DNA of 45,925 bases, taken from the NCBI RefSeq assembly GCF_001037465.1, contig NZ_LFCV01000034.1, positions 1-45,925 on the forward strand. Direction: 5' to 3'. A program made the position numbers and the translations under genes. Positions 13,852 through 32,806 of the stretch are shown here, in pieces (the first letter of the stretch is position 1; each line of letters begins with the position of its first letter). The DNA is from Xenorhabdus khoisanae. GTDB taxonomy: Bacteria; Pseudomonadota; Gammaproteobacteria; Enterobacterales; Enterobacteriaceae. The notes beneath the pieces are model-generated. The model was not told the DNA's origin. It saw only the letters and a list, made by a program, of their open reading frames with translations, and searched no databases.

Positions 13852-14541
13852 CTATAACACCAACATTTCTGCATGGATGCGTTTGCCATTTTTAAACCAT
13901 ACAGAAGTGTGCCTTTCCATACGACTGGAACTACGATTACTTATCGGTTTGCCTGGCTCTTTAGGTTTCAAAAAAGGTTTTGGTGTAATAGGATCGACAG
14001 TCATTGTCCTTGAATAAGCTTCTTTTTCTGCCCTAAAGGCAGCTCTGGCATTTTGGTTCAGAGAAAGCTCTGAAAAATGAAGCTGACAAATATGACCTAT
14101 TCTGAATACTTCTTCATTACGTTGAATATCTTTATCATGCTCGTAACTCAGGGTTTGTGGATTAAAATAATTATGACGTACCTTAACCGCCCCAACATAA
14201 CCAATCACAATACTGTTTGAACACAATTTAGAAAACTCAGAAGCAAAAGATTCCTCAAAGCTGTAAGGAGAATCTCTATCCTTCTCGCAAGTTGCGGAAT
14301 TACATACCACCAGATGAATATACCTAAATCTGTCTAATATTATTCCTCCATTATTAACTAATTGATCATATAGTTCATTAGGTGTCATGTTTTCTACAGT
14401 CAGATTTTCACTCAGAACGGTTAAATATCCCATGAAATAATTTTCATCATATTCACCATGAGAACAAACTGATAAACGGAGATGACCACGATAAGTATCT
14501 TCGAATGTATAAAAACCACGAAAGACTTTAATATTCCTCAT
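13852..14541 (-). CDS. Putative caspase-like (clan CD) cysteine peptidase, unknown role
   Basis: The 229-residue product is not one I recognise by name. It shows a His-Gly after a hydrophobic strand (LRLSVCSHGE, His about 28) and, 52 residues later, a Cys ending a second hydrophobic strand (YIHLVVCNSA, Cys about 80). Next comes a Ser/Phe-rich helix and a strand (VIGYVGAV). This H-G ... C order and spacing is the signature of caspase-fold peptidases, including CHAT and toxin self-processing (C80-type) domains. The C-terminal third is basic and Pro-rich. The start at 14541 is chosen because aagga precedes it at suitable spacing; an ATG three codons upstream overlaps that site. There is no signal peptide. 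It is AT-rich and has no operon partner. Confidence 0.6.
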   Translation of the reverse strand: MRNIKVFRGFYTFEDTYRGHLRLSVCSHGEYDENYFMGYLTVLSENLTVENMTPNELYDQLVNNGGIILDRFRYIHLVVCNSATCEKDRDSPYSFEESFASEFSKLCSNSIVIGYVGAVKVRHNYFNPQTLSYEHDKDIQRNEEVFRIGHICQLHFSELSLNQNARAAFRAEKEAYSRTMTVDPITPKPFLKPKEPGKPISNRSSSRMERHTSVWFKNGKRIHAEMLVL

Positions 14542-15328
14542 GATAACCATTCCTTATATGCCACTCTTGTCTTTACCATTCCCATACTGATCAGTATGAA
14601 TACGATAGCAACCTGGTGGATTATTCATGCAATTAATTACCACTTATTAGTTAGAACGAAATATCGCAGAAAAACAAGCAAATAAATTGACTACATTAAG
14701 GATTGGATTCTGATTTAATGATCAGAATATCAAATGGATGGAAATAAAGAATCAAAGAAACCTACAGCAAAACTGTAGGCTTTGGATCAACTTTCTTTTC
14801 TTACCCTGAACAGCCTTAAAAAAGCGACCAAATCTTTTCTGGAAACTCGTCGTACTTACTGTTTGCGACAATTCGATAACGTAGGTGAATATCTGATCTC
14901 ATAAAACCCGCATATCGTTATAATATAACATTACGATAATCCGATTTCTTGTTGCTGACAACTCTCTTTTGCTGCTATTCACCGAATAGAACTAAAATGA
15001 AAAAAGCAAATACAGGCTAATAATTTAGTTTGTCACTATTTCTTATTCATATTGAGGCTCTTAGATTTTTTCACTATTAATTTTCACTTAATGAGAAAAT
15101 TAATTTATATTTGTTGGTCATTTTGATATTCATCATTTCATTTCGCCGTAAATCCATAAAACAGGCATGCTTATCGCCAAATTCCCATGATAAATATCAG
15201 GTAATCAGAGTAATCCAATTATTGCGATACGATTCAAAAAAGACCTTTTTTCCGCTATTAACTTATTCTGAAAACTGATTTAATTAAGCATTGCTTAATA
15301 ATCATTATCACCTTGAGACAGCATTCTG
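14542..15328. other. 0.79-kb stretch without a recognised gene
   Basis: This region is AT-rich. It contains a small hairpin at 14761-14779 (CCTACAG/CTGTAGG), which has a T-rich tail on the - strand and may be a weak leftward terminator. A stretch of 48 open codons without a start lies on the - strand (about 14898-14755); its translation is basic and was not recognised, so it could be a gene relic. The 3' part must carry the promoter of the yqiJ-like operon. No RNA gene was recognised. Confidence 0.5.
15283..15299. promoter_or_regulatory. Perfect palindrome just upstream of the yqiJ-like gene (operator candidate)
   Basis: ATTAAGCA and TGCTTAAT flank a single central base (17 bp in all), about 30 bp before the start codon at 15329. 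Its size and place suit a dimeric regulator site overlapping the promoter or leader. No cognate regulator gene lies nearby. Confidence 0.5.
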
Positions 15329-15955
15329 ATGGCGCTTTTTTTACAAAACTGCTTGGCTTTTCCCGTTGTTATTTTCAGTGGGCTATTATTCATTGTTTTG
15401 TTTTATTGGATATGTGCTGCTTTTGGTTTGCTTGATATTGATTTCCTGAGTGTGGATGTAGATAGCTTAGATGCTTCCTCACTGGCTGGCTGGTTAACAA
15501 AACTCGGCCTCACTGGAATTCCTGTCACCGTTATTATTACGCTCATTACTCTGATTGGCTGGCCACTCAGCTATTTCAGCATGCACTTAATGCTCCGTTT
15601 CATTGAAACTGATGTGCTCCGTTATTTACTTGGAACCGCCACTTTCTTTATCGTGAGTTTCATTGCCCTGTTATTGACGGCAATGCTCTTGCGCCCATTA
15701 CAACCGAAATTGTCCAGACTCAATCGTTCCAACAGTGTTGACAATCTGATTGGCAAAGTCGCCGAAGTCCGTTCCCCCATTGTGACTGAACAGCGTGGTG
15801 AAGCCCTGATGGATAATCACGGAGCCAGTTTAATCTTACAAGTACGAGCACCAGAAAGTGACGGTATTACTCGTGGAGATCGTGTCGTATTGATCAGTTA
15901 TGACGCTGCAACCCACAGTTACACCGTGGTGAGTGAAGATGAATTTAAGTTGTAA
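15329..15955 (+). CDS. yqiJ: YqiJ/NfeD-like membrane protein with C-terminal OB fold
   Basis: The 208 residues match E. coli YqiJ in size and layout. Membrane segments occur at about 8-32, 64-85 and 96-121. A C-terminal soluble domain (about 135-205) has the OB-fold pattern seen in NfeD-type partners of flotillins (DNLIGKVAEVRSPIVTEQRG ... GDRVVLISYDAATHSYTVV). Such proteins work with SPFH proteins in membrane microdomains. The flotillin gene follows after 35 bp, so the two probably form an operon. The start is supported by position of the first membrane segment; the ribosome-binding site (tgaga) is modest. Confidence 0.85.
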   Translation: MALFLQNCLAFPVVIFSGLLFIVLFYWICAAFGLLDIDFLSVDVDSLDASSLAGWLTKLGLTGIPVTVIITLITLIGWPLSYFSMHLMLRFIETDVLRYLLGTATFFIVSFIALLLTAMLLRPLQPKLSRLNRSNSVDNLIGKVAEVRSPIVTEQRGEALMDNHGASLILQVRAPESDGITRGDRVVLISYDAATHSYTVVSEDEFKL

Positions 15956-15990
15956 CGACTTACTAGCCCCAAAATAAAATGGAGAAATAC

Positions 15991-18195
15991 ATGTCAGATA
16001 TTGCCATGGCAGATTTCATGCCTTTCTTGATCATCGTTGCGACGATAATTGTCGTCATTCTGGGTTTCTTTGGGCTTTTCAAAGCGTTTTACATCAAAGT
16101 CCCGCAAGGAACCGCGCTGATCGTCAACGATATGTCCTCCCAGCCAAAAGTGCATTTTACCGGTGCGCTGGTTTATCCGATTATTTACAAAAAGGAGTTC
16201 ATGCGCATTTCTTTGCTGACTCTGGAAGTCGATCGCCGTGGTAAAGATGGCCTGATCTGTAAAGATAACCTGCGTGCTGACATTACCGTTGCATTCTACC
16301 TGCGTGTTAATGAAACCACCGAAGATGTACTGAAAGTGGCGAAATCCATTGGCGTAGAGCGCGCTTCTGACCATAACGCCGTCAATACCCTGTTCAGCGC
16401 CAAATTTTCAGAAGCACTGAAAACCGTGGGTAAACAATTCGAACTGTCAAAATTGTTCGAAGATCGCCAAAACTTCCGCGATCGCATTGTTGATGTCATT
16501 GGTAAAGATCTGAACGGCTATGCGCTGGAAGACGTCGCCATCGACTATCTGGAACAAACGCCGAAAAACTCTCTGGACCCGAACAATATTTTCGATGCGG
16601 AAGGCATTCGTAAAATTACTGAAATCACCGCCATCCACAATATTGAAACCAACCAGAAAGAACGCGATCAAGAACTGGCTATCCAAAAGAAAAATGTAGA
16701 AACCCGTGAAGCCAGCCTGGCACTGGAGCGCCAGCAAGCGGATGCAGAAGCCCGTCAGAAGCGTGAAATCGAAAGTATCCGCGCCCGTGAATCTGCTGAA
16801 ACTTTGCGTGTACAGGAAGAAGAGCGCTTGAAAGCAGAGCAGGCTCGTATTCAGACCCAACAAGAAATTGAAATCCGCGAAGAAAACCGTCTGCGTGAAG
16901 TCGAAGTGGCACAACAAAATCGCTCCCGTGCCGTCGCCATTGAGATGGAAAAAGTCATTCGTGCACAAGAATTGGAAATTGTTTCCCGTGAACGCGAAGT
17001 CGAACTCCAGCGCATTGATAAAGAAAAAGCACTGGAAGAAGAGCGCAAAAACATCTCTAACGTGATTCGTGAACGTGTTGCCGTAGAGAAAACCGTGGCG
17101 CAGGAAGAAGAACGCATCAAAGAAGTCCGCATGGTTTCTGAAGCCGACCGCCAGAAGCAGGTCACCATTATTCAAGCCCAGGCCAAAGCGGAACAAGAGC
17201 TGGTTCGTCAGGTGAAACAAGCCGAAGCGGATGAGAACAGTGCCAAGTATAAAGCATTGGAAATCAGTACGATGGCACAAGCAGAGCTGGAAGCTACCGC
17301 CAAGCAGTCAGAAGCGAAAAAACGTATGGCCGAAGGTATTGAAGCCGAAGAAGCCGCATTAGGTCTGGCCGAAGCACGAATTCGCCAAGCCAAAGCCGAA
17401 GCCGAAGAGAAAGAAGGTCTGGTACAGGCGAATGTGATTGCAGAAAAATTGCTGGCAGAAGCCCGTGGTACGCAGGAAAAAGGTCTGGCAGAAGCACGTG
17501 TTCTGGAAGCCCAGGCCAGCGCAGCCGAGAAACAAGGCCTTGCCGAAGCGAAAGTTCTGGAAGAGAAATTGACAGCACAGGCGCGTGGTGATGAACAACA
17601 AGCCAATGCTAAAGAAAAACTGGGTTTGGCGGATGCCAAAGTGCTGGAAGAAAAACTGGTGGCACAGGCTCGCGGTGAAGGCCAATTGGGTTCTGCACAA
17701 GCAGAAGTTATCCGTCAGCGTCTGAAAGCAGAAGCGGACGGCCTGACCGACAAATTCACGGCGATGGGTAATCTCAACGATACAGCTCGCGATCACGAAG
17801 AGTTCCGTATGCAGCTTGAGAAGAACTTCGAACAAGCGATAGCCTCCATTGCAGCCAACAAAGAGATTGCCAAAGAGCAAGCGGAAGTGTTGGCAGCGGC
17901 GCTCAGCAAAACCAACATTGATATCGTCGGTGGTGACGGCAGTTTCTTTAATACCTTCTCCAAAGCGCTCAGTGTGGGTAAAGCCATTAATGGCGTGGTA
18001 GACAAAAGCCCTCTGGTCAAAGAAGCCGTGCAGAAGTTACTGGCTGGAAAAGGTGAAAAAGAAATCAGCGAAAAAGAAGTGGGAGAACAAAAGCTAAACC
18101 TCGATTCACTCCTGCAAAACCCAGAAGTGCAGTCTTTGGTCAACATGTTTGGTGCAAATAAAAAACGCCATAACAAAGAAAGTACCGAAGAGTAA
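15991..18195 (+). CDS. yqiK: Flotillin (SPFH/band-7 protein, YqiK type), long form
   Basis: The 734-residue protein is anchored by one N-terminal membrane helix (about 9-30), followed by an SPFH domain (about 35-215) and then a very long Ala/Glu/Lys-rich coiled coil (about 220-600). The last part of the coil is built of degenerate repeats around LAEAKVLEEKL-AQARG. Flotillins scaffold ordered membrane domains as large oligomers. E. coli YqiK is shorter (about 550 residues), so this is an extended version. The start at 15991 has ggag 6 bp upstream; an in-frame ATG at 15979 lacks one. It lies between the NfeD-like gene and the giant ATPase gene, which suggests it scaffolds that ATPase at the membrane. 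Confidence 0.9.
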   Translation: MSDIAMADFMPFLIIVATIIVVILGFFGLFKAFYIKVPQGTALIVNDMSSQPKVHFTGALVYPIIYKKEFMRISLLTLEVDRRGKDGLICKDNLRADITVAFYLRVNETTEDVLKVAKSIGVERASDHNAVNTLFSAKFSEALKTVGKQFELSKLFEDRQNFRDRIVDVIGKDLNGYALEDVAIDYLEQTPKNSLDPNNIFDAEGIRKITEITAIHNIETNQKERDQELAIQKKNVETREASLALERQQADAEARQKREIESIRARESAETLRVQEEERLKAEQARIQTQQEIEIREENRLREVEVAQQNRSRAVAIEMEKVIRAQELEIVSREREVELQRIDKEKALEEERKNISNVIRERVAVEKTVAQEEERIKEVRMVSEADRQKQVTIIQAQAKAEQELVRQVKQAEADENSAKYKALEISTMAQAELEATAKQSEAKKRMAEGIEAEEAALGLAEARIRQAKAEAEEKEGLVQANVIAEKLLAEARGTQEKGLAEARVLEAQASAAEKQGLAEAKVLEEKLTAQARGDEQQANAKEKLGLADAKVLEEKLVAQARGEGQLGSAQAEVIRQRLKAEADGLTDKFTAMGNLNDTARDHEEFRMQLEKNFEQAIASIAANKEIAKEQAEVLAAALSKTNIDIVGGDGSFFNTFSKALSVGKAINGVVDKSPLVKEAVQKLLAGKGEKEISEKEVGEQKLNLDSLLQNPEVQSLVNMFGANKKRHNKESTEE

Positions 18196-18207
18196 AAAGC
18201 AACACTT

Positions 18208-18236
18208 ATCCGTCACGGTTGCCTGTGACGGATTTT
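18208..18236 (+). terminator. Intra-operon hairpin, possible attenuator
   Basis: A perfect 9-bp stem (ATCCGTCAC at 18208-18216, GTGACGGAT at 18225-18233) is followed by a short run of T. It lies in the 107-bp gap between the flotillin and ATPase genes. It could partly terminate transcription, so that flotillin is made in excess of the ATPase, or act as a processing site. Confidence 0.55.
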
Positions 18237-18302
18237 CCCTGCACTCCATTTTCCCTGTACTACGCACCATACTGAACCATATTGAAGGAAACGTGATACG
18301 CC

Positions 18303-21300
18303 ATGTCAGATAGCCAATTGAATAATCGTGAACAGGAATTACTGGATAATGCTGTCGCGGAAGGCGGAGCCTACGATATCTTACGCAGTCGTCTGTCTGA
18401 ACAAGGCCAGCAGCTACATGAAAAAGCTAGCCTGTTGAACAGCCGACGTCTGAAAGAGTTTGGCAAAAACCAGACTGATATTATCGGGCGTATCCGCATC
18501 CGTACAGAAAACAACTGCGTTGCCCGTGATATTGTCCGTGTCGGCAATTGGTTATTGTTTGGCTACAACGTATTCCTCGGCTTAAAAAAAGAGACGCGGG
18601 TTGAAGATGTTTTTTCCCTGTACAGGCTCAAGAAAGAAAATGACGAATATGATGTGGAATCCGTCGCGCTGACAGGCACGTTTCTCAACATCACCAGCTT
18701 TGTACAGGATTTCAACGAGCTTTACACTTACTACAAAAACACCCAGCTATTGGAACTGGTTGAGCGTGATGGCAAATTGCTCGCCAGCTTTCAGATTGGT
18801 GAACGAATTACCGACATTCGCGTGTTTCGCTGGGCAATCTCCAGCGACAAAACAGAAATAACCTACATTGATAACCGTGGTGAACGTGATATCGCTTTGC
18901 CTCCTGCCTATGATTTTGAATGGCAGAAAACCACGCGCGAAAACACCGTAAATGGCCGCTATCCACATATGAACATTCTGGATACCGTGTTTGTGGAAAC
19001 CATTGGCGGCGATCTGACCATTAAATGTGAAAACAACACCGAAGATGGATTGGGGATCTACCGGGAAGCGGTGCTGGATAAAACCCAATCACTGGATGAT
19101 GCCCAGATTGAATACGCCCAGACAGGCAGCCTGATCCTGTTGAAAATCCTGCCCTACCGTGAAGAATCCTGGCGTTATCTGGTCTATAACACGCTGACCC
19201 AAAGTGTGCAGCGCATTGATGCCATCGGTCTGGCCTGTATTCAGTTACCTGAAGATCACGGTATTATTTTCCCCGGCGGCTATTATCTGCAAAGCGGGGA
19301 ATACAAAACTTTCGATCAGCCGATGGATGGCATGCGTTTTCGTCGTGTCCGCCGATCCCCAAATGGCGAAGATGTCATGTATATCTTCTATGAACCTAAT
19401 TTAGGCCGTTTGGCTCTGTTCAATTACAACTTAATCGAACGCAAACTCCAAAACCCACTATTTGGTCACGGCTATGCCATGCTGGAAGATGGTCAGATGG
19501 TGCTGTTTGAAGGGCAATCAGAGGAACCAACCCGCATCCATCCGATGCAAATCTGGCAAACTCCGTTCTATTCTGACGAATACGCTGCTCGCCAACCTGC
19601 GAGAAACAGCTTTTTAGGCCGCATCGGTAATGCTGAACTGGTGCGCGGTATTTCCGATCTTTACCATATTGCTAAGGAAATTGAACAACAGCAAATTTCC
19701 TCCCTGCTCTACGAAAAACTCTGCCAGGATGCCCGCCGTTTGGTAGATATCTATTATTGGCTAAATGACGAACAAAGCCTGCATATCTCCGGGTTACTGA
19801 AAGAGATTGCCAATACCGGTGAGAAGGTACTGGATGAATACGAAAAAGTAGAAAGTATCCGTCGCCAGTCCATTCGGGCCATGAATGAGGCGACATCACA
19901 TCAGAAAGCGTTACTGACAGCGATGCTGCCTGAAAGCTGGACTGAAACTCAGCAATTTATTGAAGCCTTAAACAGTTTGAGCATCCAGCGTGGTCACTTG
20001 ATCACACTGCGCGACCATCGTTATATCGATCTGTCCCGCCTTGATGAAATGGAAGCGCAACTGGCTGATAACCAACAGCGTATTTCACTGGCGACTGCCG
20101 AATTTCTTGCCAGCGAGAAAGCACTACAGCCATTTACTCTGCAATTGCAAGAACTGGAAAAACAGGTTCAGGCCGCTGCCAATCGCGCCCAGCTTAACGA
20201 GCCACTGGCGGGCATGGAGAAAATGTCCACCGATCTGGATATGTTGTCAAACCTGATGGCTTCGTTGAAATTCGAGGACACAACCCAACAGACCCATATT
20301 ATTGAGTCGATTTCCGAAATTTATGCCCTGCTGAATCAGGCTCGTGCCAGACTGCAACAACGGCGTAAAGAACAGGGCGCGGTTGAGTCCGTCGCGCAGT
20401 TTGGTGCACAATTTAAATTATTCAGTCAGGGGATTACTAATGCCCTGACACTTTCTACCGATCCAGAACGCTGTGACGAACAGCTTTCCCGCCTATTGGT
20501 ACAACTGGAAGAGCTGGAAACCCAATTCAGTGATCACGATGAGTTCCTGAATGACATTCTGGATAAACGTGAAGAGTTGCTGGAAACCTTTGAAACCCAC
20601 AAGCAGTCATTGCTGGATGAACGTCAGCGTAAGACCCGGAACTTGCAGGTTGCGGCAGAACGTCTGCTGGATAGCGTTAGTCGCCGGACAGCAAAATTTT
20701 CGGCCCTTGATGAACTGAATGCCTTCTTTGCTTCCGATACCCTATCGCTGAAAACCCGCGAAATTATTGAACGTTTGCGTGAACTGAAAGACAGCGTAAA
20801 AGCAGACGATATCGATGCCAAATTCAAAGCTGCGCGAGATCAGGCGATCCGCAGCCTGCGGGATAAGACTGAAATCTATGAAGATGGCGGAAACGTTATC
20901 AAACTTGGTCCACGCCACCGTTTCAGCGTGAATACCCAAGAGCTGGATCTCACCATCCTGCCACGGGGCGATCATCTCTATCTGCACCTGACAGGCACAG
21001 ATTATCAGGAACCCATTGATAGCCCGGAACTTGAATCCCTGAAACCTTATTGGTCGATTACTCTCGAATCAGAATCCCCTCAGGTTTATCGCGCTGAGTA
21101 CCTTGCTTATTCACTGATTTATGCAGCGAGTAAAGAACATGATGACCTGACACTGGATGGCTTGAAATCCCTGTTAAGCAAGCCAGATATTCTGGAAAAA
21201 ACCGTTCGTGAATTCGCTGCACCCCGCTATAAAGAAGGCTATGAAAAAGGTATCCATGACCATGACGCAGTGGAAATCCTGCGTAAATTAATTCCGGTTG

Positions 21301-23252
21301 GGGAAAGTGCCGATCTTTTACGGTTCAACCCTCATGCCAGAGGGATTGCCGTGCTTTTTTGGGAACAAGTTCAACACGAAGAACAGCCTGCATTGTGGCC
21401 TGAACGTGCCCGTACCTGTACCAATATTTATCAGCTTTTCCGTAATGATGCTGGCTTACTGGATCTTCAGGCGGAAATCGAAGCAGAGATTAGCCTGTTC
21501 CTTGAACGCCATCCAATTAAGTGTGAACCTTACCAACAAACACAAGCAGCGGAATACCTGGGCCTGGCACTGAGCCGGACAAACGTGGAATTCAGTTTCA
21601 GCAAATATGCCCGTACATTATTGGAAGGACTGCAATCTGAACTGGAAAAAGCCCATATGTGGGGGGATTTCAGCCACTCCCAACAGAATCTCGGTCAACG
21701 TTTTACTCAACGCTGGATGCTGGTGGAAAATTGGCTGAATGGTCTCTGTTCCCTGCCAGAATTTTCCTCTCTGAAAGGATATATTTCAGAAGCCGTGGCG
21801 TTGGTTTTATTAGAAAAAACGCTGAATGCCCGTTTCAGTGAAGTAGATCTGCACTTTACTGTTACCGGCTTGATTGGTGAACACTCTTCCATCGTTAACC
21901 AAGCTCTGACTCTCAGCCTTGATGACTATTTCTGCCGGATGCGCAAACAGCGCAAAGTATTTATTCCGGCCTATCATCATTATCAGGAATTGCGTCAAGG
22001 TGTATTAAACCAACAGAGAAAAAATCTGCGACTCCATGAATTCAAGGCCCGCCCGCTCAGCTCATTTGTACGTAATAAACTGATCAACGATGTGTATCTG
22101 CCACTGATTGGCGATAACCTTGCCAAACAGATCGGGGCGATCGGGGAAGGTAAGCGAACGGATCTTATGGGGATGTTATTAATGATCTCCCCGCCCGGCT
22201 ACGGCAAAACAACGTTGATGGAATATATCGCCAATCGCCTTGGTTTGATCTTCATGAAAATCAACGCGCCTGCGTTAGGGCATGATGTTTTGTCGCTCGA
22301 TCCGGATCAGGCGCCAAACGCCACCGCCCGTCAGGAACTGGAAAAACTGAATCTGGCGCTGGAAATGGGCAATAACGTGATGCTGTATATCGATGATATC
22401 CAGCATACCAACCCTGAATTCTTACAGAAATTTATTTCCCTGTGTGACGGTACACGACGTATTGAAGGGGTCTGGAAAAACCAGACTAAGACCTACGATA
22501 TGCGAGGGAAAAAATTCTGCGTTGTTATGTCTGGTAACCCTTATACCGAATCTGGCGAATTGTTCAAAATCCCGGATATGCTGGCAAACCGTGCTGATAT
22601 CTACAACCTTGGTGAAGTGTTGGGTGGTATGGAAGAGGCATTTACGCTGAGTTATATCGAAAACAGCCTGACATCGAATCCGGTTCTGGCACCGCTGGCA
22701 TTACGTGATATGAACGATTTGTATCTGTTTATCGATAAAGCGATGGGCAAACCGTTCTCCAGCAATGGCCTGAGCTATCCCTACAGTGAAGCGGAAATCA
22801 CTGAAATTGTCGCGATCCTTGAACGCCTGCTGATGATGCGGGAAATCGTATTTAAAGTGAATCAGCAATACATTGCCAGTGCTGCGCAATCCGACAAATA
22901 CCGGACAGAACCACCGTTCAAGTTGCAGGGCAGTTACCGCAACATGAACAAACTCAGCGAAAAAGTTTCTGCTGTCATGAATGACGAAGAGATACGGCGC
23001 ATTATTCATGATCACTATTTAGGTGAAGCCCAATTGCTGACAAGTGGCGCCGAAGAGAACCTGCTCAAACTGGCAGAAATTCGCGGCACAATGACACAGG
23101 AAGAAGCGCAACGCTGGCAGCAAATCAAACGCGATTTTATGCGAAATAAAGCACTGGGTGGTGATAATGCCGATGTGGGTGACCGCGTTGTGGCACAACT
23201 TTCTGATTTGGTTGAAAGTGTTCAGGCTTTGGGAAGCTACCCGAAGCATTAA
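18303..23252 (+). CDS. Giant AAA+ protein of the 'DNA repair ATPase' (DUF3686-type) family
   Basis: The product has 1649 residues. The N-terminal third (about 1-470) is beta-rich with family-typical stretches such as GRIRIRTENNCVARDIVRVG; the family is known from databases as 'DNA repair ATPase' with little experimental basis. A long helical and coiled-coil section follows (about 500-900). The C terminus has one AAA+ module with Walker A SPPGYGKTT (about 1295-1303), Walker B NVMLYIDDIQ (about 1358-1367) and a possible sensor/arginine region (VVMSGNPYTESG). There is no membrane segment or signal. It follows the flotillin gene in the same direction. A remodelling ATPase recruited by the flotillin is inferred; a direct role in DNA repair is not shown by the sequence. 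Confidence 0.85.
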   Translation: MSDSQLNNREQELLDNAVAEGGAYDILRSRLSEQGQQLHEKASLLNSRRLKEFGKNQTDIIGRIRIRTENNCVARDIVRVGNWLLFGYNVFLGLKKETRVEDVFSLYRLKKENDEYDVESVALTGTFLNITSFVQDFNELYTYYKNTQLLELVERDGKLLASFQIGERITDIRVFRWAISSDKTEITYIDNRGERDIALPPAYDFEWQKTTRENTVNGRYPHMNILDTVFVETIGGDLTIKCENNTEDGLGIYREAVLDKTQSLDDAQIEYAQTGSLILLKILPYREESWRYLVYNTLTQSVQRIDAIGLACIQLPEDHGIIFPGGYYLQSGEYKTFDQPMDGMRFRRVRRSPNGEDVMYIFYEPNLGRLALFNYNLIERKLQNPLFGHGYAMLEDGQMVLFEGQSEEPTRIHPMQIWQTPFYSDEYAARQPARNSFLGRIGNAELVRGISDLYHIAKEIEQQQISSLLYEKLCQDARRLVDIYYWLNDEQSLHISGLLKEIANTGEKVLDEYEKVESIRRQSIRAMNEATSHQKALLTAMLPESWTETQQFIEALNSLSIQRGHLITLRDHRYIDLSRLDEMEAQLADNQQRISLATAEFLASEKALQPFTLQLQELEKQVQAAANRAQLNEPLAGMEKMSTDLDMLSNLMASLKFEDTTQQTHIIESISEIYALLNQARARLQQRRKEQGAVESVAQFGAQFKLFSQGITNALTLSTDPERCDEQLSRLLVQLEELETQFSDHDEFLNDILDKREELLETFETHKQSLLDERQRKTRNLQVAAERLLDSVSRRTAKFSALDELNAFFASDTLSLKTREIIERLRELKDSVKADDIDAKFKAARDQAIRSLRDKTEIYEDGGNVIKLGPRHRFSVNTQELDLTILPRGDHLYLHLTGTDYQEPIDSPELESLKPYWSITLESESPQVYRAEYLAYSLIYAASKEHDDLTLDGLKSLLSKPDILEKTVREFAAPRYKEGYEKGIHDHDAVEILRKLIPVGESADLLRFNPHARGIAVLFWEQVQHEEQPALWPERARTCTNIYQLFRNDAGLLDLQAEIEAEISLFLERHPIKCEPYQQTQAAEYLGLALSRTNVEFSFSKYARTLLEGLQSELEKAHMWGDFSHSQQNLGQRFTQRWMLVENWLNGLCSLPEFSSLKGYISEAVALVLLEKTLNARFSEVDLHFTVTGLIGEHSSIVNQALTLSLDDYFCRMRKQRKVFIPAYHHYQELRQGVLNQQRKNLRLHEFKARPLSSFVRNKLINDVYLPLIGDNLAKQIGAIGEGKRTDLMGMLLMISPPGYGKTTLMEYIANRLGLIFMKINAPALGHDVLSLDPDQAPNATARQELEKLNLALEMGNNVMLYIDDIQHTNPEFLQKFISLCDGTRRIEGVWKNQTKTYDMRGKKFCVVMSGNPYTESGELFKIPDMLANRADIYNLGEVLGGMEEAFTLSYIENSLTSNPVLAPLALRDMNDLYLFIDKAMGKPFSSNGLSYPYSEAEITEIVAILERLLMMREIVFKVNQQYIASAAQSDKYRTEPPFKLQGSYRNMNKLSEKVSAVMNDEEIRRIIHDHYLGEAQLLTSGAEENLLKLAEIRGTMTQEEAQRWQQIKRDFMRNKALGGDNADVGDRVVAQLSDLVESVQALGSYPKH

Positions 23253-23393
23253 AAGGAAACTCGCCGTGAATTTTTTAATGAGAGTGTTGCTCTCTATAAT
23301 ACTGGCATTCAAACCTTCCCTAATCTGATACTTGCCAGAATATTAGGTTATCAACCACGCACCATGCTTGATATCAGTGCCAGTGATAAATAA
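23253..23393 (+). pseudogene. C-terminal remnant of a LemA family gene
   Basis: Directly after the ATPase stop and in the same frame there are 46 codons. They include FFNESVALYNTGIQTFPNLI and then LARILGYQPR, which is the conserved C-terminal signature of LemA proteins (yNeaV-YNt-i-FPnn-iA---Gf-p). The rest of LemA (about 140 residues with its N-terminal membrane helix) is missing, so this is a deletion remnant. A GTG at 23266 opens a different, short frame and is not convincing. LemA proteins are membrane-linked helical proteins of unclear function. Confidence 0.75.
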
Positions 23394-23402
23394 GGAAATT
23401 TC

Positions 23403-23798
23403 ATGCTGACCATCCCTTTTGAACTATTTGGTTTTGCCGATATGATGGAAAAAGAACCCGGATACGTCATTGCCATATCAACCTTTGGCCTGTTTATTCC
23501 TTTCTTCATATTCGCTATATTGCAGAAAATTCCTCCATTAAGGACTTTCTCCAATATTATCCTGGGAACTCTTGGATTATCATTGTTTCCAAATTTAATC
23601 GCATTGATGTCTCTATTTGCTCTGAATATCAAAGGAATACATGCGTTCTTTATCTGTATAATTATTATGCTTGGCTGCTTTTTCTTTATCCTGTTTAATT
23701 ATCATCAGTTGGCAGATTATATTAATTCACCTTTACCTGGACATGATCCGGAAATAACCGATAGAAAACGGAGTAAAAAAAGTAGAAAAATAAATTAG
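23403..23798 (+). CDS. Small polytopic membrane protein of unknown function
   Basis: The 131-residue product has about three or four hydrophobic helices (about 20-42, 47-72, 76-102) and a basic, Lys/Arg-rich cytoplasmic tail (DRKRSKKSRKIN). I do not recognise a family. The ATG at 23403 follows aaggaaa at good spacing. It lies 9 bp after the LemA remnant and before a rhomboid gene on the same strand. It probably belonged to the same transcription unit as the flotillin/ATPase genes. Confidence 0.7.
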   Translation: MLTIPFELFGFADMMEKEPGYVIAISTFGLFIPFFIFAILQKIPPLRTFSNIILGTLGLSLFPNLIALMSLFALNIKGIHAFFICIIIMLGCFFFILFNYHQLADYINSPLPGHDPEITDRKRSKKSRKIN

Positions 23799-23901
23799 AT
23801 AGTCCTTCAGCAAGAGAGAACCGATAATTCTCATGTTCTCTGTTATGATAGGGAAAGAAAGTCTTAGTAAGCCGTTTCCAATTCTTAACAGGGAGGCAAT
23901 G

Positions 23902-24453
23902 ATGACAGTATGGTTTAAACAACGCTTAAATATCCTTATAGGAATAGCTTTAATACTGATCACCATTCAGTTAATTAATAGCTTCACGGGGTATGCCTTA
24001 AATCATTTCGGCCTTATTCCCCGCCATGTTCAAGGGCTAATTGGTATCCCTTTCTCTCCTTTCCTGCATGGCAGTTGGGAGCATCTGTTTAGTAACGTTC
24101 CCGTCTTATTAGTACTCAGTGCATTGCTGATGACTCACTCCATTCGTTATTATTTACTGGCCAGCCTGTTTATTATCTTGACGGAGGGAACTCTGCTCTG
24201 GTTATTTGGCCGTGCTGCCATACATATTGGTGCCAGCGGCTGGATTTTTGGTTTATGGGGATTATTACTGGCTAATGCTTATTTCCTGAGAAGGTTTAAG
24301 GATTTCTTCTTTGCGATTCTGGTGTTCATCTTCTATCAAGGAATTGCCTTCGGTTTGCTGCCGTGGCAACAAACCGAAGGACATATTTTTGGTACTCTCG
24401 CAGGGGTAGTTTTCTCTTGGCTTACTAAAAAATGGATCATTACACATCGCTAG
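23902..24453 (+). CDS. Rhomboid-family intramembrane serine protease
   Basis: The 183 residues contain about six membrane helices. Rhomboid hallmarks are present in order: HGSWEHLFSN in helix 2, the catalytic serine in GASG (HIGASGWIFGLWG), and the catalytic histidine in EGHIFGTLAG. The small size and lack of extra domains resemble the compact rhombosortase/GlpG-core types. The start at 23902 is chosen because gggagg lies 5 bp upstream; the adjacent ATG at 23899 is too close to it. The 103-bp gap before it has a 7-bp inverted repeat (23815-23821/23835-23841). Cleavage of a membrane substrate from the same locus is possible, but no substrate is evident. Confidence 0.88.
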   Translation: MTVWFKQRLNILIGIALILITIQLINSFTGYALNHFGLIPRHVQGLIGIPFSPFLHGSWEHLFSNVPVLLVLSALLMTHSIRYYLLASLFIILTEGTLLWLFGRAAIHIGASGWIFGLWGLLLANAYFLRRFKDFFFAILVFIFYQGIAFGLLPWQQTEGHIFGTLAGVVFSWLTKKWIITHR

Positions 24454-24916: not shown

Positions 24917-25276
24917 ATGGTTTGGACTTATCATCAATACTCAGGTGACCTATATCATAACGACAGATTAGTTTATCGTGGCGGATATAGTGGGAAAGGG
25001 ATACATAAAAACAACCCTGCATCAGAATCAATACGCGGGAAAGGCCCTATTCCTAGAGGAAAATATACTATAGGGGGATATACAAGCAGCAAAGGACCAA
25101 TGACTATCATTCTGGAACCGTGTGATTGTAATAATATGTATGGAAGAGACCTTTTTAGAATTCATGGAGATAGTAGAGAAAATCCTGGGCAAGCATCAGA
25201 AGGTTGTATCATTGTAGGGCCTGATGCCAGAAGGGAAATAATCAGCTCTGTAGATAGAGAGTTAGTGGTGGAATAA
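24917..25276 (+). CDS. Tlde1-like L,D-transpeptidase effector (DUF2778 type)
   Basis: The 119-residue product is a compact domain with family features: GKGPIPRGKYTIG (about 41-53), a conserved His in FRIHGDS (about 83) and the Ser-Gly-Cys centre ASEGCII with the catalytic Cys at about 97. These match Tlde1, the type VI secretion effector of Salmonella that acts on peptidoglycan peptides as an L,D-transpeptidase/carboxypeptidase in the target periplasm. It has no signal peptide, as expected for a type VI cargo. A gene for an exported protein follows after 2 bp. No secretion genes are in the window, so it would be an orphan effector served by an apparatus encoded elsewhere. Confidence 0.82.
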   Translation: MVWTYHQYSGDLYHNDRLVYRGGYSGKGIHKNNPASESIRGKGPIPRGKYTIGGYTSSKGPMTIILEPCDCNNMYGRDLFRIHGDSRENPGQASEGCIIVGPDARREIISSVDRELVVE

Positions 25277-25278
25277 GT

Positions 25279-25662
25279 ATGAAAAAATTCATTTTACTTG
25301 CAATGTTATTTGTTCCTAGTATTGCATTATCTTCAGCGAAAGATTCAACAAAAGAAGCTTTAGATTACTGTGCAACAACCGAATCTTGGGCTGCTCAAAA
25401 AGTGATAGATGCAGCAGTCGAGAGAAATAAACAGCTTGATCGAATGAAAGCGACCTCTTCCCTAATTGAGAGAAATAAATTGGTAAAAGGGAAGAAACCA
25501 ATCACATTCGAAGACTGGGGTCAGTTATACACTCAAACAATAGAAGTCTCTATTCCATATATCGATAATCACAAAAAACCTGTTATTTTCATAGCCTCAT
25601 CAATCATATCAGCGGAAGAGTGTTCATTAACAGAACCCGCTTACTTTGATATAACTCACTAA
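25279..25662 (+). CDS. Probable periplasmic immunity protein for the Tlde1-like effector
   Basis: The 127-residue product has a textbook Sec signal peptide (MKKFILLAMLFVPSIALSSA, cleavage after about residue 20) and a small helical mature part with two Cys (about 31 and 115). Its start lies 2 bp after the effector stop, so the two are co-translated. The known Tlde1 immunity proteins are likewise small, periplasmic and encoded directly downstream. Sequence similarity itself was not recognised; the call rests on context and export signal. Confidence 0.72.
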   Translation: MKKFILLAMLFVPSIALSSAKDSTKEALDYCATTESWAAQKVIDAAVERNKQLDRMKATSSLIERNKLVKGKKPITFEDWGQLYTQTIEVSIPYIDNHKKPVIFIASSIISAEECSLTEPAYFDITH

Positions 25663-27702: not shown

Positions 27703-30700
27703 TTAAAAATGAGCACTGAACGTATCAAAGTTATCGACTTTGACAAATTTGGCAGCATTGGGTATCTCTTTGCCATCTTTGTCTTTGCTTAACGCATTGA
27801 AATGCTCAACGCCACACTTGATCTTAGCCTGTTCAGCCTCACGCAGATCATCTGAGAATATACTTGATTTCGTTTCAACCACGAAGTAAAGCTGCTCTCC
27901 CATTCCATCATCTTTGTCAATTAATACCGCCCAATCAGGATTGTAACTGCCCAGCGGGGTATCAATCTTGAACCAAGATGGCAGCTTGGAATAAATCTTC
28001 ACTTCTTCAGCGCGTTCTAGCTTTTCGGCGAAGTTAAACTCGGTATCTGAATCACAAATGATATAGTCATATATCGATTTTTCAGCTTTCACCATATCTT
28101 TGAGGTAGCCAGTCAGCTCTTCTTCCTGGAAAAGCTCTTGGGCATAGTATGTTTCTTCACCAAGACGGTGATATTTAACACCACCTACAATGACAATACG
28201 CATTTGTTTACGAATAACCTCACCAGCTAACTCGATAAAGCGCTGAGGGTTGTTTTTGAAGGCTTCCAACTTATCGCCCAAACCCAGCAGAATATCGATA
28301 ATTGTCTGACGGGTCAGATTGGTCTGATCGGTCAGATAAGTCACGATATCAGGCAACTGGAAGTTGCGATTGCGATAATACTGGATTTTGGTTTTCTCAT
28401 CGTAGGTTTCCAGTTCGGCTTCAGTAACCGCAACCTTAACTTTGGTGTACTGAAACTTGGCGCTGGCTACCACCACGTTCTCTCTAATTTCCTTGATACA
28501 GTTTTCAACCAGGTCGTTGATATTAAAGTTAACACGATAAGTTGTTTTGTATTTAATGCGCCCCCAAAGCGCCTTAAAGGCTTCACCAAGTACAACCTGC
28601 TTACCATTTGTATCTTCACACAAAGCGACAGAGCGCTTCTCTTCGTGTTTTTTCACGTTCAAGCCTTTTGTCAGTTTCTTCAACGTGGCAACGATGGCAT
28701 CAGTATGCTCAGTGACACTGGAAGGCAGACTCACCTCGTTGTTATTAATGGCAATTTTCAGCGCATCCTGAATCTTGCCTTTGGCATCGATATAACCTTG
28801 AAACATAAGGTGCCGGAAGATCTCTTCTGACTTCTTCGCCCCCAAGAAGGCTTTCTGATCCAGTCCGCCAGAAACAACAATGTTGGCAAATTGGTGAGAC
28901 TCAACCGCACCAAATTTAATGCCTTCTTCCGCTTCAATCTCTTTTTGCAGTTCAGAAACAAAGCCTTCATAAGATTCGTTTGCCATAACGGTCAGCGTAT
29001 TTACCTCAAAACCATAAGGCACGCGCTCACCCGATTGATCAACGGCTAAACGTAGGCCACGACCGATTTCCTGTCGTTTTTTAGTGATTGAATTGGTTTC
29101 ATTCAACGTACAGATCTGGAAAACATTCGGGTTGTCCCAGCCTTCTTTCAGTGCTGAGTGTGAAAAGATGAAGCGCAGCTTCTCGTCTATAGATAGAAGC
29201 TTTTCTTTGTCTTTCATGATCAGGTTATAGGCCGACTCATCGGCCGCAGTTTTTCCCCCTTCGCCTTTAGATGAAAGCTTCGAATCAGCAAACTGAGGTT
29301 TGCCAGAAGCATCTTTTTTCTTGTCCTGTGCAAAGTAGCCATCATGCACCGCTTGAATGAGTTCTCGCAACGCGGCTTCGTTGATGGTGTATTTATCTCC
29401 ATCATGATCCCAGATTATCGGGTATAACACGCGATATTTGGGCTTGCTAACCAGCCTGGCAAACTCTTCTTCAAACCACTTGGCAAACTTACCCTGAACA
29501 GGAACGCCATCTTTAGAGTAGCCGCGGTAGTTGGCAACCTTATCGATAAAGAACAGACTCAGCACCTTAATCCCTTTCTGGCTTAGAATTTTCGGGTGCT
29601 CGAGCCTGTCATAGCCCGTTGTTACCTTGTGATAGAATTTCAGCTCTTTTTCCAGATGCTCTTCGATAGTTTTGGCTATTTGAATGCGCTTAAAGGCCTC
29701 TGAATCCACTTCACCAATGGCTTGCCCAAGGCGCACAATTTCATCGCGACTGGTAAAATCAATATACTCATTACCTTCTTCGCAATAAATATCGTTAACA
29801 ATATAGCCTTCATAAACACTACGCCCACCCGAAAGTTCGAATAAGTCATTAATCTGACCATCTTTGATAGTTATTACCTTACGTGGTTGCAGCTTACCTG
29901 TGCGTGTTTGAGCGTCAATTTCAATCTTGGCAGAAATGGGGGACGTCTTATTATCAACACTCACTAGCTTGATGTAGGCTTGGTTGTGCCCGTCCTTAAC
30001 ATCCAGAGAAGCAACCTCAATTTGCTTAACCAGTTTACGTTCATAGGCATCGATAGCGTCAAGTTTATACAGCAGATGTGGCGCTTCCTTCAACGTGGCT
30101 GAATAACGGAATGTACACAGCGGTTTTAAGCTGCCAATCGCTTCTTTTCGGTTTGCCGTTGATACTACTGATTGTGGTTCATCAATGATTACCACAGGGC
30201 GAGTAACCTGAATAAATTCAATAGGCTTCATCCCGTTCAATCTGTCATCTGTACGGTGAATCAGATTCGCGGTAGTTTCCTTTGTCGGATCGGTGAATGA
30301 CTTACTGAACGCATCAATATTGATCACCATGATTTGGATGTAATCATTGGTAGCAAAGTTACGGATCTGTTCGCGCTTTGATGAGTCATAGACAAAATAG
30401 TCATACTGGATATTTTTGTACTGCTCACGGAAGTGCTGCTCAGTGATTTGCAGTGATTTATAGACACCTTCTTTAATCGCAATAGACGGCACCACGATGA
30501 TAAATTTTGTCAGTCCATGACGCTGATTTAGCTCAAAGATAGAACGCAGGTACACATAGGTTTTACCTGTACCAGTTTCCATCTCAATGCTGAAATCTAG
30601 ACTTGGCAGTTCTTGTTTGACGTTTTCAACCTGTGGCAAGCCATTCTTTAACTGGACATTACGTGTGTTGGCATAAATCTCATCAGGCAATAAAGCGAGA

Positions 30701-30876
30701 ATATTACCAACACCGATGTCGTTGTTCTTACCAAAGATATCTAGCTGCTGATTCGCCAGCATATTATCAGCTACAGTGAAATTGGATTGAAATGTTTCCT
30801 GCCCTTCAAACACACCTAAAACAGCCTCAACCGCATCTATTTGGTGTGATAAGTCCGATCTAAATTGAATCTTCAT
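27703..30876 (-). CDS. res: Type III restriction endonuclease subunit (Res)
   Basis: The 1057-residue protein couples ATP-driven movement along DNA to cleavage, together with Mod. Superfamily-2 helicase motifs are clear: Walker A ETGTGKT (about 100-106), Walker B as DEPQ (about 232-235) and the arginine-finger motif QEIGRGLRL. A C-terminal PD-(D/E)xK nuclease is visible as YNPDWAVLID (Asp about 981) and FVVETKSS (Glu about 1001, Lys about 1003). I chose the ATG at 30876 (MKIQFRSDLSHQ) because aaggtg lies 6 bp upstream; GTG 30885 and ATG 30882 are alternatives. It starts within 15 bp of the mod stop, so the two genes are coupled. No frame damage was seen. Confidence 0.95.
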   Translation of the reverse strand: MKIQFRSDLSHQIDAVEAVLGVFEGQETFQSNFTVADNMLANQQLDIFGKNNDIGVGNILALLPDEIYANTRNVQLKNGLPQVENVKQELPSLDFSIEMETGTGKTYVYLRSIFELNQRHGLTKFIIVVPSIAIKEGVYKSLQITEQHFREQYKNIQYDYFVYDSSKREQIRNFATNDYIQIMVINIDAFSKSFTDPTKETTANLIHRTDDRLNGMKPIEFIQVTRPVVIIDEPQSVVSTANRKEAIGSLKPLCTFRYSATLKEAPHLLYKLDAIDAYERKLVKQIEVASLDVKDGHNQAYIKLVSVDNKTSPISAKIEIDAQTRTGKLQPRKVITIKDGQINDLFELSGGRSVYEGYIVNDIYCEEGNEYIDFTSRDEIVRLGQAIGEVDSEAFKRIQIAKTIEEHLEKELKFYHKVTTGYDRLEHPKILSQKGIKVLSLFFIDKVANYRGYSKDGVPVQGKFAKWFEEEFARLVSKPKYRVLYPIIWDHDGDKYTINEAALRELIQAVHDGYFAQDKKKDASGKPQFADSKLSSKGEGGKTAADESAYNLIMKDKEKLLSIDEKLRFIFSHSALKEGWDNPNVFQICTLNETNSITKKRQEIGRGLRLAVDQSGERVPYGFEVNTLTVMANESYEGFVSELQKEIEAEEGIKFGAVESHQFANIVVSGGLDQKAFLGAKKSEEIFRHLMFQGYIDAKGKIQDALKIAINNNEVSLPSSVTEHTDAIVATLKKLTKGLNVKKHEEKRSVALCEDTNGKQVVLGEAFKALWGRIKYKTTYRVNFNINDLVENCIKEIRENVVVASAKFQYTKVKVAVTEAELETYDEKTKIQYYRNRNFQLPDIVTYLTDQTNLTRQTIIDILLGLGDKLEAFKNNPQRFIELAGEVIRKQMRIVIVGGVKYHRLGEETYYAQELFQEEELTGYLKDMVKAEKSIYDYIICDSDTEFNFAEKLERAEEVKIYSKLPSWFKIDTPLGSYNPDWAVLIDKDDGMGEQLYFVVETKSSIFSDDLREAEQAKIKCGVEHFNALSKDKDGKEIPNAAKFVKVDNFDTFSAHF

Positions 30877-30886
30877 TACCATCACC

Positions 30887-32806
30887 TTAAATGCTCTTCA
30901 CATCGTTGATACCATACTGCTTCAGGATCTGAATCGTATTGGCCTTCACTACGCTGTCGGCAAAGCCTTGGTCTTTAAAAACGACTTGAGTACTTTCTGG
31001 ATTGAATTTTTCTTTCAGTTTGACGATGCCCTCAACCACCTGTTCAGTGATACCATCGTCCAAGCAAACCATTAAGGCACCTGTGCCAACAACAAATACT
31101 CTTTTACCTTCTACAATTGCTTCTTCAACATGGGTGGTCAATTCAATACCGTATTTAAGTAGGATTTCATAAAGAATATCTTCTGAGCTTCTATTATCTT
31201 TTATGGAATTAGCTGCTTGTTGGATAACTGATTCTAGATCATCAAAATCAGCGTCCCAGCTGTTAATATTGGTGTCACTCAAAGTAAACGCTTTAAAGCC
31301 AGTATCCACATTAGAGTTTTCTAATGCTATTTTATCACCAGCTCTCCGGATTCTTTTCTTAGTGATATCGCTTATTTTCTTGTATTCGCTTATAGGTTTT
31401 ATAAGTAGCTCAGGTAATTGGATAGCAATAAATTTACGATTACCATTATCTTTTGAATTTCGAGCCATTATGGCATGAGCGAGGGTTCCCGAACCCGAGA
31501 AAAAATCCATGCAGATTTCATTTAAATTTGGAGGACAAGAATACACGACTAAATCTTCAATAAATTCAACAGGCTTTGGATTATCAAAATCTACGTCAGT
31601 CATGAGCGCTCTATATTTCTTTGTCGCGCCATCAGTCGAATAGTCAGTGCCAAACATAACTGATTTTGGTTTTACACGTTTGATAGTTCCTGATTGATCT
31701 AAGTAATCTTTTTCATATATATTGCGCTTATCGCTATCTCGAACTGTTCGACCAATTAAACTATCTAATCTCAGGCTAGCTGTACTTTTCCCCCACCTCC
31801 AACGACCATCTACATTGTTTGACTTTGCTGGAAGTACTATCTTAGAAAAGACTTCACTTTGTTCTAGACTCACATTTCCCGTCATGGGATCCACGTAGAA
31901 CGGATAATACATATTTGGTCTTTCTTCCCGCGTATCTGCTCCTCCACGTTTACGTAACTCAATAAGGCGATACCTTCCGTTTTCATCAGAGAATTTGTAA
32001 TCTTTAACTTTGCTATCTGTGAGGTCTAGCCCATATTCTTCAAACAAGTCTGATTTTTTGTACATCAGAAGTCTTTCATTTGCTGTCGCAATATTCTTTT
32101 TATCATTTCTGCCTTTTAAGTTATTTACGACACACACATCAGCTACGAAATTTGTCTCACCAAAAATCTCGTTCATGATGTTTCTTAGATTTGAGGACTC
32201 ATTGTCATCTATAGATACAAATATCACTCCATCTTCTTTAAGAAGGTTCCTTGCTAATTTCAAGCGAGGATACATCATAGACAACCAATTAGAATGGTAA
32301 CGTCCAGAAGCTTCTGTATTAGTACTTAATTTTTTACCATCAATACTTACTTGACCAGTTACTTCTAAGTAATTTTTTATATTATCTTGGAAATGATCAG
32401 TATAAACAAAATCCTTGCCCGTATTGTAAGGAGGATCGATATATATCATCTTAACTTTCTTGTGATAGGCCTTTTGCAACAATTTAAGCACTTCAAGGTT
32501 ATCACCTTCAATAAAAAGGTTCTCTGTGGTATCCCAATTCACACTTTCTTCTTTACAAGGGCGTAGCGTACCTGTTGATGGAGTTTGGGCAATTTGACGT
32601 GCGCGGGTTTTACCATGCCAAGTGAAGTTATAGCGCTCATCTGAATCATCAACGACTTCACCAAGCACAGCTTTTAAAGCGTCAAAGTCGATTTTTCCTT
32701 CAGAAAATACCTCAGGGAAAAGCTGTTTAAGTTGATCGATATTTTCTTGAGTGATATCCGCACTCTTGGATTCTGGGTAGTTCAGGGTGATTTTTTCAAT
32801 TGTCAT
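30887..32806 (-). CDS. mod: Type III DNA methyltransferase subunit (Mod), N6-adenine
   Basis: Mod recognises the DNA site and methylates adenine, and also directs Res. From ATG 32806 (MTIEKITLNYPESKSADI, the usual N terminus of this family) it has 639 residues; an in-frame ATG at 32845 adds 13. The order is that of a beta-class enzyme: catalytic motif IV DPPYNTG (about 124-130), then a central target-recognition region, then the AdoMet motif MDFFSGSGTLAHAIM late in the protein. The central region is where specificity lies and cannot be read by eye. No simple-sequence repeat of the kind that drives phase variation was seen in the gene. Confidence 0.95.
   Translation of the reverse strand: MTIEKITLNYPESKSADITQENIDQLKQLFPEVFSEGKIDFDALKAVLGEVVDDSDERYNFTWHGKTRARQIAQTPSTGTLRPCKEESVNWDTTENLFIEGDNLEVLKLLQKAYHKKVKMIYIDPPYNTGKDFVYTDHFQDNIKNYLEVTGQVSIDGKKLSTNTEASGRYHSNWLSMMYPRLKLARNLLKEDGVIFVSIDDNESSNLRNIMNEIFGETNFVADVCVVNNLKGRNDKKNIATANERLLMYKKSDLFEEYGLDLTDSKVKDYKFSDENGRYRLIELRKRGGADTREERPNMYYPFYVDPMTGNVSLEQSEVFSKIVLPAKSNNVDGRWRWGKSTASLRLDSLIGRTVRDSDKRNIYEKDYLDQSGTIKRVKPKSVMFGTDYSTDGATKKYRALMTDVDFDNPKPVEFIEDLVVYSCPPNLNEICMDFFSGSGTLAHAIMARNSKDNGNRKFIAIQLPELLIKPISEYKKISDITKKRIRRAGDKIALENSNVDTGFKAFTLSDTNINSWDADFDDLESVIQQAANSIKDNRSSEDILYEILLKYGIELTTHVEEAIVEGKRVFVVGTGALMVCLDDGITEQVVEGIVKLKEKFNPESTQVVFKDQGFADSVVKANTIQILKQYGINDVKSI

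What the first reader, a model, noticed from the sequence alone, without database searches (positions are those of the whole stretch)
15329..24453. Flotillin-NfeD-giant ATPase locus with membrane protein and rhomboid: candidate undescribed membrane system
Six codirectional units form a coherent set: a YqiJ/NfeD-like membrane protein, an extended 734-residue flotillin, a 1649-residue AAA+ protein of a family labelled 'DNA repair ATPase' without firm function, a LemA relic, a small basic-tailed membrane protein and a rhomboid protease. SPFH proteins commonly act as scaffolds for ATPases and proteases (HflKC-FtsH is the known example). The set suggests a microdomain that recruits a remodelling ATPase, perhaps for envelope stress or defence. 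The function is not known to me.
Basis: partly seen in the sequence, partly recalled or inferred. Interest (0 to 1): 0.72.

Follow-up and report, generated by a model that had tools for sequence, protein, structure and literature searches.

The report
Flotillin-linked giant ATPase stress operon
This is a real and old gene set in which a giant motor protein travels with a membrane scaffold protein, but it has already been described as an offshoot of the bacterial membrane-stress (phage-shock) response, so the locus is a known kind of system rather than a new one.

Summary
Observation confirmed: in a Xenorhabdus-like genome six codirectional units lie as stated, including a true LemA remnant. 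The core is NfeD-like protein + flotillin + DUF3686 ATPase. In an even draw of 398 Pseudomonadota genomes 8 carry the ATPase, and all 8 have both partners directly before it; so do 70 of 70 closer relatives with enough flank. But the set is not undescribed: Ravi et al. 2024 (PMC11237479) describe this operon, with PspA-less short forms, as a branch of the phage-shock system, and the experimentally studied P. aeruginosa bac operon is probably the same. Additions here: fold models suggest a WD40-like propeller plus a MoxR-like AAA+ domain; a rhomboid recurs in the operon; Xenorhabdus species lose the trio almost always together (whole in 8 of 30, remnants in 8 of 21 losers), while 7 losers keep the rhomboid under purifying selection. 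Best reading: a flotillin/NfeD scaffold that recruits a remodelling ATPase during inner-membrane stress, with PspA encoded elsewhere (30 of 30 genomes). 'DNA repair' is a label I found no support for beyond weak hints.

The parts
15329..15955 (+). NfeD-like / YqiJ-like inner-membrane protein, 208 aa (core member 1)
   Evidence: orthologue before the flotillin in 70 of 70 relatives and in the 7 other carriers of the even draw
15991..18195 (+). flotillin (SPFH/Band_7 + long coiled coil), 734 aa; alternative ATG at 15979 (core member 2)
   Evidence: upstream of the ATPase in 70 of 70 relatives
18303..23252 (+). DUF3686 AAA+ ATPase, 1649 aa (core member 3): residues ~57-421 beta-propeller by model, middle region with DUF7902 606-690 not modelled, C-terminal AAA+ region
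18414..19757 (+). DUF3686 region: WD40-like beta-propeller by model
22173..22613 (+). AAA+ nucleotide-binding core, residues 1291-1437 (ISPPGYGKT, LYIDDIQH, modelled strand pair 1387-1398, GNPYTE, LANRAD)
23262..23390 (+). LemA relic: C-terminal 43 codons of a lost lemA gene
23403..23798 (+). 131-aa membrane protein with basic tail; among the loci searched seen only in Xenorhabdus, at this site
23833..24453 (+). rhomboid intramembrane serine protease (accessory, separable); likely true start 23899 or 23902

Best explanation
The core trio is the PspA-less short form of the extended phage-shock (PSP/BAC) membrane-stress operon. Inferred mechanism: the flotillin and its NfeD-like partner assemble a multi-subunit ring or cage on the cytoplasmic face of the inner membrane and mark a stressed patch; the giant ATPase docks there through its propeller and coiled coil, and its MoxR-like AAA+ ring spends ATP to remodel what gathers there, most likely PspA polymers (made elsewhere in this genome) or damaged membrane-protein complexes, much as Vps4 turns over ESCRT-III. 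The rhomboid is an optional helper that may cut membrane clients and also has a role of its own. Shown here by computation: constant gene order, near-complete joint loss in Xenorhabdus, probable fold class, PspA in trans. Shown in published work on the probable P. aeruginosa counterpart: co-transcription, joint accumulation, up-regulation on phage infection. Inferred: cage, docking, substrate.
Against: 24 of the 70 relatives lack adjacent PspA/YjfI, as does this locus, so PspA need not be the substrate; PspA is present in all 30 Xenorhabdus whether or not the trio is, so it does not predict the trio. [quoted passage not shown] I did not see which genes were in each mutant). A pa3728 insertion mutant served as a neutral growth control. 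That PA3728/BacF is the DUF3686 protein is inferred (gene order in L027), not read from a P. aeruginosa locus. L133 keeps an open, shortened flotillin without the ATPase, L146 a nearly complete NfeD-like gene, and L111 an open flotillin beside broken NfeD-like and ATPase genes. The AAA+ model is of middling quality (pTM 0.70). I found no report of a physical interaction.
Confidence: 0.6

Rival explanations
1. Membrane-protein quality control without PspA: the flotillin/NfeD cage sorts damaged membrane proteins, the ATPase pulls or unfolds them and the rhomboid cuts them, a functional parallel to HflKC-FtsH.
For: In pQBR103 and L058 it sits elsewhere in the same operon. Intact LemA genes occur at the site in two Xenorhabdus genomes.
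Against: Rhomboid not found downstream in most loci (52 of 69); 7 of 21 Xenorhabdus genomes without the trio keep an open rhomboid, median dN/dS 0.159 among them, so it appears to work without the ATPase. No peptidase domain found in the ATPase.
Confidence: 0.2
2. A MoxR-type maturation chaperone: the ATPase ring, anchored at a flotillin patch, inserts cofactors into or activates a respiratory or metal enzyme complex, as NorQ does with NorD.
For: Nearest folds are NorQ and CbbQ. A Shewanella flotillin mutant (SO1377, next to the DUF1449 gene SO1376) has altered iron metabolism and peroxide sensitivity (title and passages).
Against: No VWA partner or dedicated enzyme was evident among the 25 largest neighbour clusters printed; VWA was not searched for by profile. 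The word ATPase does not occur in the main text of the SO1377 paper.
Confidence: 0.12
3. A DNA-repair ATPase, as the database name says.
For: Pfam and NCBI names; weak RuvB matches around the P-loop and RuvB first by Foldseek E-value. The SO1377 flotillin mutant shows increased spontaneous mutation (title), which its authors explain by leaking iron and radicals.
Confidence: 0.04
4. A dedicated anti-phage defence system.
For: Patchy distribution (9 of 30 Xenorhabdus; 8 of 398 Pseudomonadota); up in lytic-phage infection of P. aeruginosa; a type III restriction-modification pair starts 3.3 kb downstream.
Against: No PADLOC match for the five proteins scanned, none found in 50,697 phage records or by the pattern scan of viral contigs; the site next to asd is constant, with remnants in 8 of 21 losers, which looks like decay of an old resident set. 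Induction also fits membrane stress.
Confidence: 0.08

Closest known systems
Extended PSP operon with flotillin, YqiJ/YuaF and beta-propeller AAA+ (Ravi et al. 2024, PMC11237479)
   Same: Same three core proteins and architectures; the paper names shorter operons without PspA (passages)
   Different: This locus lacks YjfI, PspA and a phospholipase D-like gene; it has a LemA relic, a 131-aa membrane protein and a rhomboid. 'LemA' and 'rhomboid' have 0 occurrences in that paper's main text
bacABCDEF of P. aeruginosa (PMC2587700, PMC10948618)
   Same: bacA = YjfI family, bacB = PspA-like; short NfeD gene and flotillin paFlo3 at PA14_16160 and PA14_16180; PA3728 listed as ATPase; P. aeruginosa has a DUF3686 protein, 66% identical to this one. 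That bacF is this ATPase is inferred
   Different: It has bacA, bacB and a further gene bacE, which this locus lacks; I saw no LemA or rhomboid in the passages read
E. coli yqiJ-yqiK
   Same: NfeD-like (DUF1449) gene followed by flotillin; flotillins 29% identical
   Different: No ATPase follows; NfeD-like proteins only weakly alike
B. subtilis PspA-YdjGHI
   Same: SPFH protein needed to bring PspA to the membrane (abstract)
   Different: Other membrane partners; the abstract mentions no ATPase
MoxR AAA+ (NorQ, CbbQ)
   Different: Fused to a propeller and a long helical region; no VWA partner seen, though not searched by profile

Membership tests
PSP-type flotillin/YqiJ/AAA+ operon, short form (Ravi et al. 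2024) | flotillin with TM, Band_7 and coiled coil | tested here: met
   Band_7 over its cut-off, YqiK-like over 459 columns; TM and coiled coil read from the sequence only
PSP-type flotillin/YqiJ/AAA+ operon, short form (Ravi et al. 2024) | AAA+ ATPase fused to an N-terminal beta-propeller | tested here: met
PSP-type flotillin/YqiJ/AAA+ operon, short form (Ravi et al. 2024) | coiled coil in the ATPase | tested here: inconclusive
   judged from sequence and from helices at both ends of the models; residues 501-1189 were not modelled
PSP-type flotillin/YqiJ/AAA+ operon, short form (Ravi et al. 2024) | YqiJ/YuaF-like membrane protein | tested here: inconclusive
   right place and size in relatives, but Pfam YqiJ_N in only 1 of 26 orthologues and profile comparison probability 90.7
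Full PSP operon | PspA (and YjfI) in the same operon | tested here: not met
   not found here nor in 7 of 7 other Xenorhabdus loci with upstream flank; PspA encoded elsewhere
Full PSP operon | induction by membrane stress | not testable with these tools
   reported for the probable P. aeruginosa counterpart on phage infection, not for this locus
MoxR-clade AAA+ | AAA+ core with pre-sensor-1 hairpin and closest fold to MoxR proteins (features recalled) | tested here: inconclusive
   strand pair modelled at residues 1387-1398; MoxR rows lead by 1-2 Z; Foldseek E-values mix RuvB and MoxR; helix-2 insert not established
DNA-repair ATPase | DNA-binding or nuclease domain | tested here: not met
   none in Pfam or NCBIfam scans apart from RuvB P-loop matches below cut-off
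Rhomboid protease | rhomboid domain with catalytic Ser and His motifs | tested here: met
Known anti-phage defence system | match to a PADLOC model | tested here: not met
   five proteins scanned

The most novel reading that the evidence does not exclude
The propeller-MoxR ATPase is an obligate resident of a flotillin/NfeD cage and a bacterial analogue of Vps4: a dedicated energy-driven disassembly machine for membrane-stress polymers, able to act on PspA supplied in trans, with rhomboid and LemA proteins as lineage-specific adaptors. This would give one class of flotillin microdomains a motor of its own.
Probability: 0.3. Interest if true: 0.75.

Novelty: new member of a known kind. Interest (0 to 1): 0.42.

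Why it matters
Bacterial flotillins are widely called scaffolds, yet what they scaffold is mostly unknown. A giant ATPase that had its flotillin and NfeD-like partner in every locus examined with enough flank, in at least four phyla, is a ready-made candidate client for one flotillin class and gives PSP-type membrane repair a candidate motor. It also questions the name 'DNA repair ATPase', which many of the 120 relatives listed bear (6401 of the 7997 candidates scored there are relatives at E 1e-20 or better). The Xenorhabdus losses offer natural deletion strains for testing.

Tried and rejected
DNA-repair role: no DNA-binding domain found. Defence: no PADLOC, phage or viral-contig match. PDB by sequence: nothing for the propeller profile (E up to 1) or the flotillin profile (E up to 0.001), two chance hits for the NfeD-like profile; the AAA+ profile matched mainly P-loop stretches of Cdc48/p97, Rix7 and RuvB (best 60 of 67 shown). 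Promoter and terminator scan no better than shuffles. Neighbour clustering (top 25 clusters printed) was dominated by frame-shadow ORFs of GC-rich genomes and by low-complexity flotillin sequence; only the phospholipase D-like, small EF-hand/TerB-like and zinc-ribbon clusters were taken on. My phospholipase D and zinc-ribbon profiles were too loose (81 and 82 hits), so their counts are not used. The script missed the flotillin in L062 and L091 because of overlapping frames; both have it. The gene calling showed no ATPase or hid the flotillin in several GC-rich loci; the stop-to-stop search replaced it. The profiles were built from hits in the same loci. LemA as a general partner was rejected: 0 of 69 genome-contig loci, with a profile from four sequences. 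Families not listed by the structural aligner (Vps4 among them) are not thereby excluded. DUF3686: 0 papers in the held library.
Full report
What was checked. The window is contig 34 of a 4.66 Mb genome of a Xenorhabdus-like bacterium (the three best ATPase relatives are Xenorhabdus, 91-95% identical). It lies in the replication-origin region: yidC, dnaA and gyrB are encoded to the left. The flotillin has 734 residues from ATG 15991; the rhomboid most likely starts at 23899 or 23902 behind AGGGAGG (my reading), so it is shorter than the listed frame. The LemA relic is real: 43 codons just after the ATPase match the end of PF04011, and two related genomes carry intact lemA genes at that place.

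Is the association real? I tested it three ways. 70 of the 80 have at least 3.5 kb upstream: NfeD-like gene in 70 of 70, flotillin in 68 of 70 by script, and the two exceptions carry it on recheck. The other 10 were not judged. (2) Of 12 plasmid-collection hits seven were fetched: 7 of 7 have both by profile, from Pseudomonas, Deinococcus, Streptomyces, Hymenobacter, Proteus, Vibrio and Halomonas. Several of these records are chromosome-sized. (3) An even draw of 398 genomes from the window's phylum gave 8 with DUF3686, the window's genome included; the 7 others all have NfeD-like, flotillin and ATPase in that order. From the ATPase's side the association is close to obligate. The reverse is not true: E. 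coli yqiJ-yqiK stands without the ATPase.

What else comes with it. YjfI (DUF2170) and PspA lie upstream in 46 of the 70 loci. pQBR103 has the largest form seen here: YjfI, PspA, rhomboid, DUF2491, DUF350, DUF1190, glutathionylspermidine synthase-like, NfeD-like, SPFH, ATPase. A rhomboid follows the ATPase within 300 bp in 17 of 69 genome-contig loci with at least 2.5 kb downstream, and in 6 of 8 other Enterobacterales loci (7 of 8 within 6 kb). In pQBR103 and L058 the rhomboid sits upstream, inside the operon. Recurrence in different positions argues for a functional link. The GxSG motif was found in 35 of 36 rhomboids listed; the histidine pattern used there missed many Pseudomonas copies, so the histidine was not judged across the set. 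A phospholipase D-like protein also recurs downstream; Ravi et al. mention one.

Natural experiment in Xenorhabdus. DUF3686 occurs in 9 of 30 species genomes. In 8 of the 9 the set lies next to asd; in the ninth it lies at a contig end, away from asd. In the 21 genomes without DUF3686 an asd gene was found (in one, G210, itself broken) and 7.5-14.5 kb around it was read (20 genomes, one; in G208 one of two copies). Remnants of NfeD-like, flotillin or ATPase genes remain in 8 of 21 (L133, L134, L136, L138, L139, L142, L146, L148); 13 of 21 have none at E 1e-4. So the set looks old at this site and repeatedly lost. The trio is uninterrupted in 8 of 30; in the ninth carrier (L111) the NfeD-like and ATPase genes are both broken while the flotillin is open. 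Exceptions to joint loss: L133 keeps an open but shortened flotillin (616 codons stop to stop) with a broken NfeD-like gene and some 60 residues of ATPase; L146 keeps a nearly complete NfeD-like gene. The rhomboid behaves differently: 7 of 21 losers keep it open (L132, L134, L136, L145, L146, L148, L149), with median dN/dS 0.159 among them against 0.111 among seven ATPase-bearing genomes. It is therefore separable. PspA is present elsewhere in 30 of 30: available in trans, but no predictor of the trio.

What is already known. Ravi et al. 2024 (abstract and passages of sections 18-20 read; [quoted passage not shown] That is this locus. The words LemA, rhomboid, MoxR and NfeD have 0 occurrences in its main text. 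In P. aeruginosa the bac cluster (passages) is bacA (YjfI family), bacB (PspA-like), bacC, bacD, bacE, bacF; RT-PCR shows one operon, and in a bacA mutant the other five proteins rise 6.1- to 13.5-fold. PMC13086221 (passages) gives PA14_16160 as a short NfeD and PA14_16180 as flotillin PaFlo3. PA3728, numbered next to PA3729, is called an ATPase in PMC8190622 (passage) and P. aeruginosa has a DUF3686 protein, so bacF is probably the DUF3686 ATPase; I did not read that locus. One passage of PMC12041424 reports PA3728-PA3732 among 17 genes up in all phage-infected samples at both time points. Single passages in PMC4199492 and PMC10210962 list PA3728 among repeatedly altered or predictor genes in cystic-fibrosis isolates. 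[quoted passage not shown]

Mechanism. The best-supported account is a membrane-stress module: flotillin and NfeD-like protein as scaffold (for E. coli YbbK-YbbJ a cage of 26 heterodimers is cited in PMC13086221), the ATPase as remodelling motor, PspA as likely substrate or partner. The steps 'cage', 'docking' and 'substrate' are inferences. Rivals in falling order of my confidence: proteolytic quality control with the rhomboid, a MoxR-type maturation chaperone, defence, DNA repair.

Verdict. Observation confirmed; interpretation partly supported; the system is not new, and this locus is a PspA-less, rhomboid-bearing member of it. The rhomboid link, the Xenorhabdus loss pattern and the MoxR-like assignment are additions that I did not find in the passages I read.

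Noticed in passing
27703-32845 (-): Type III restriction-modification pair (Res with endonuclease domain, Mod methylase) 3.3 kb downstream of the rhomboid; matches PADLOC type III models.
   Followed up: partly
24917-25662 (+): Tlde1-domain protein (L,D-transpeptidase-like, recalled as a type VI effector fold) followed by a small secreted-looking protein, a possible effector-immunity pair just after the rhomboid.
   Followed up: no
5176-5256 (-): AsdA antisense RNA of dnaA (Rfam RF02674, 65.5 bits), the only Rfam match at gathering threshold in the window.
   Followed up: no
13852-14550 (-): 232-aa protein between asd and the NfeD-like gene, only a below-cut-off match to Peptidase_C80; whole, partial or not found in other Xenorhabdus genomes at the same site.
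   Followed up: partly
L111 (G221): In this Xenorhabdus genome the NfeD-like gene and the ATPase are both broken by frame changes while the flotillin is open: decay under way or sequencing error.
   Followed up: partly
L109:1-16001: Two lemA genes separated by a 249-codon frame lie between the ATPase and the 131-aa membrane protein in one Xenorhabdus genome.
   Followed up: no
L027:9533-9808: A 92-aa EF-hand/TerB-like protein between flotillin and ATPase; relatives upstream of the ATPase in 11 of 70 loci; Pfam scores below cut-off. Possibly bacE of P. aeruginosa (guess).
   Followed up: partly
L018, L019, L020: Three fetched records of the plasmid collection are 1.8-4.1 Mb long, probably chromosomes or chromids, so 'on plasmids' should not be read from those hits.
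   Followed up: no
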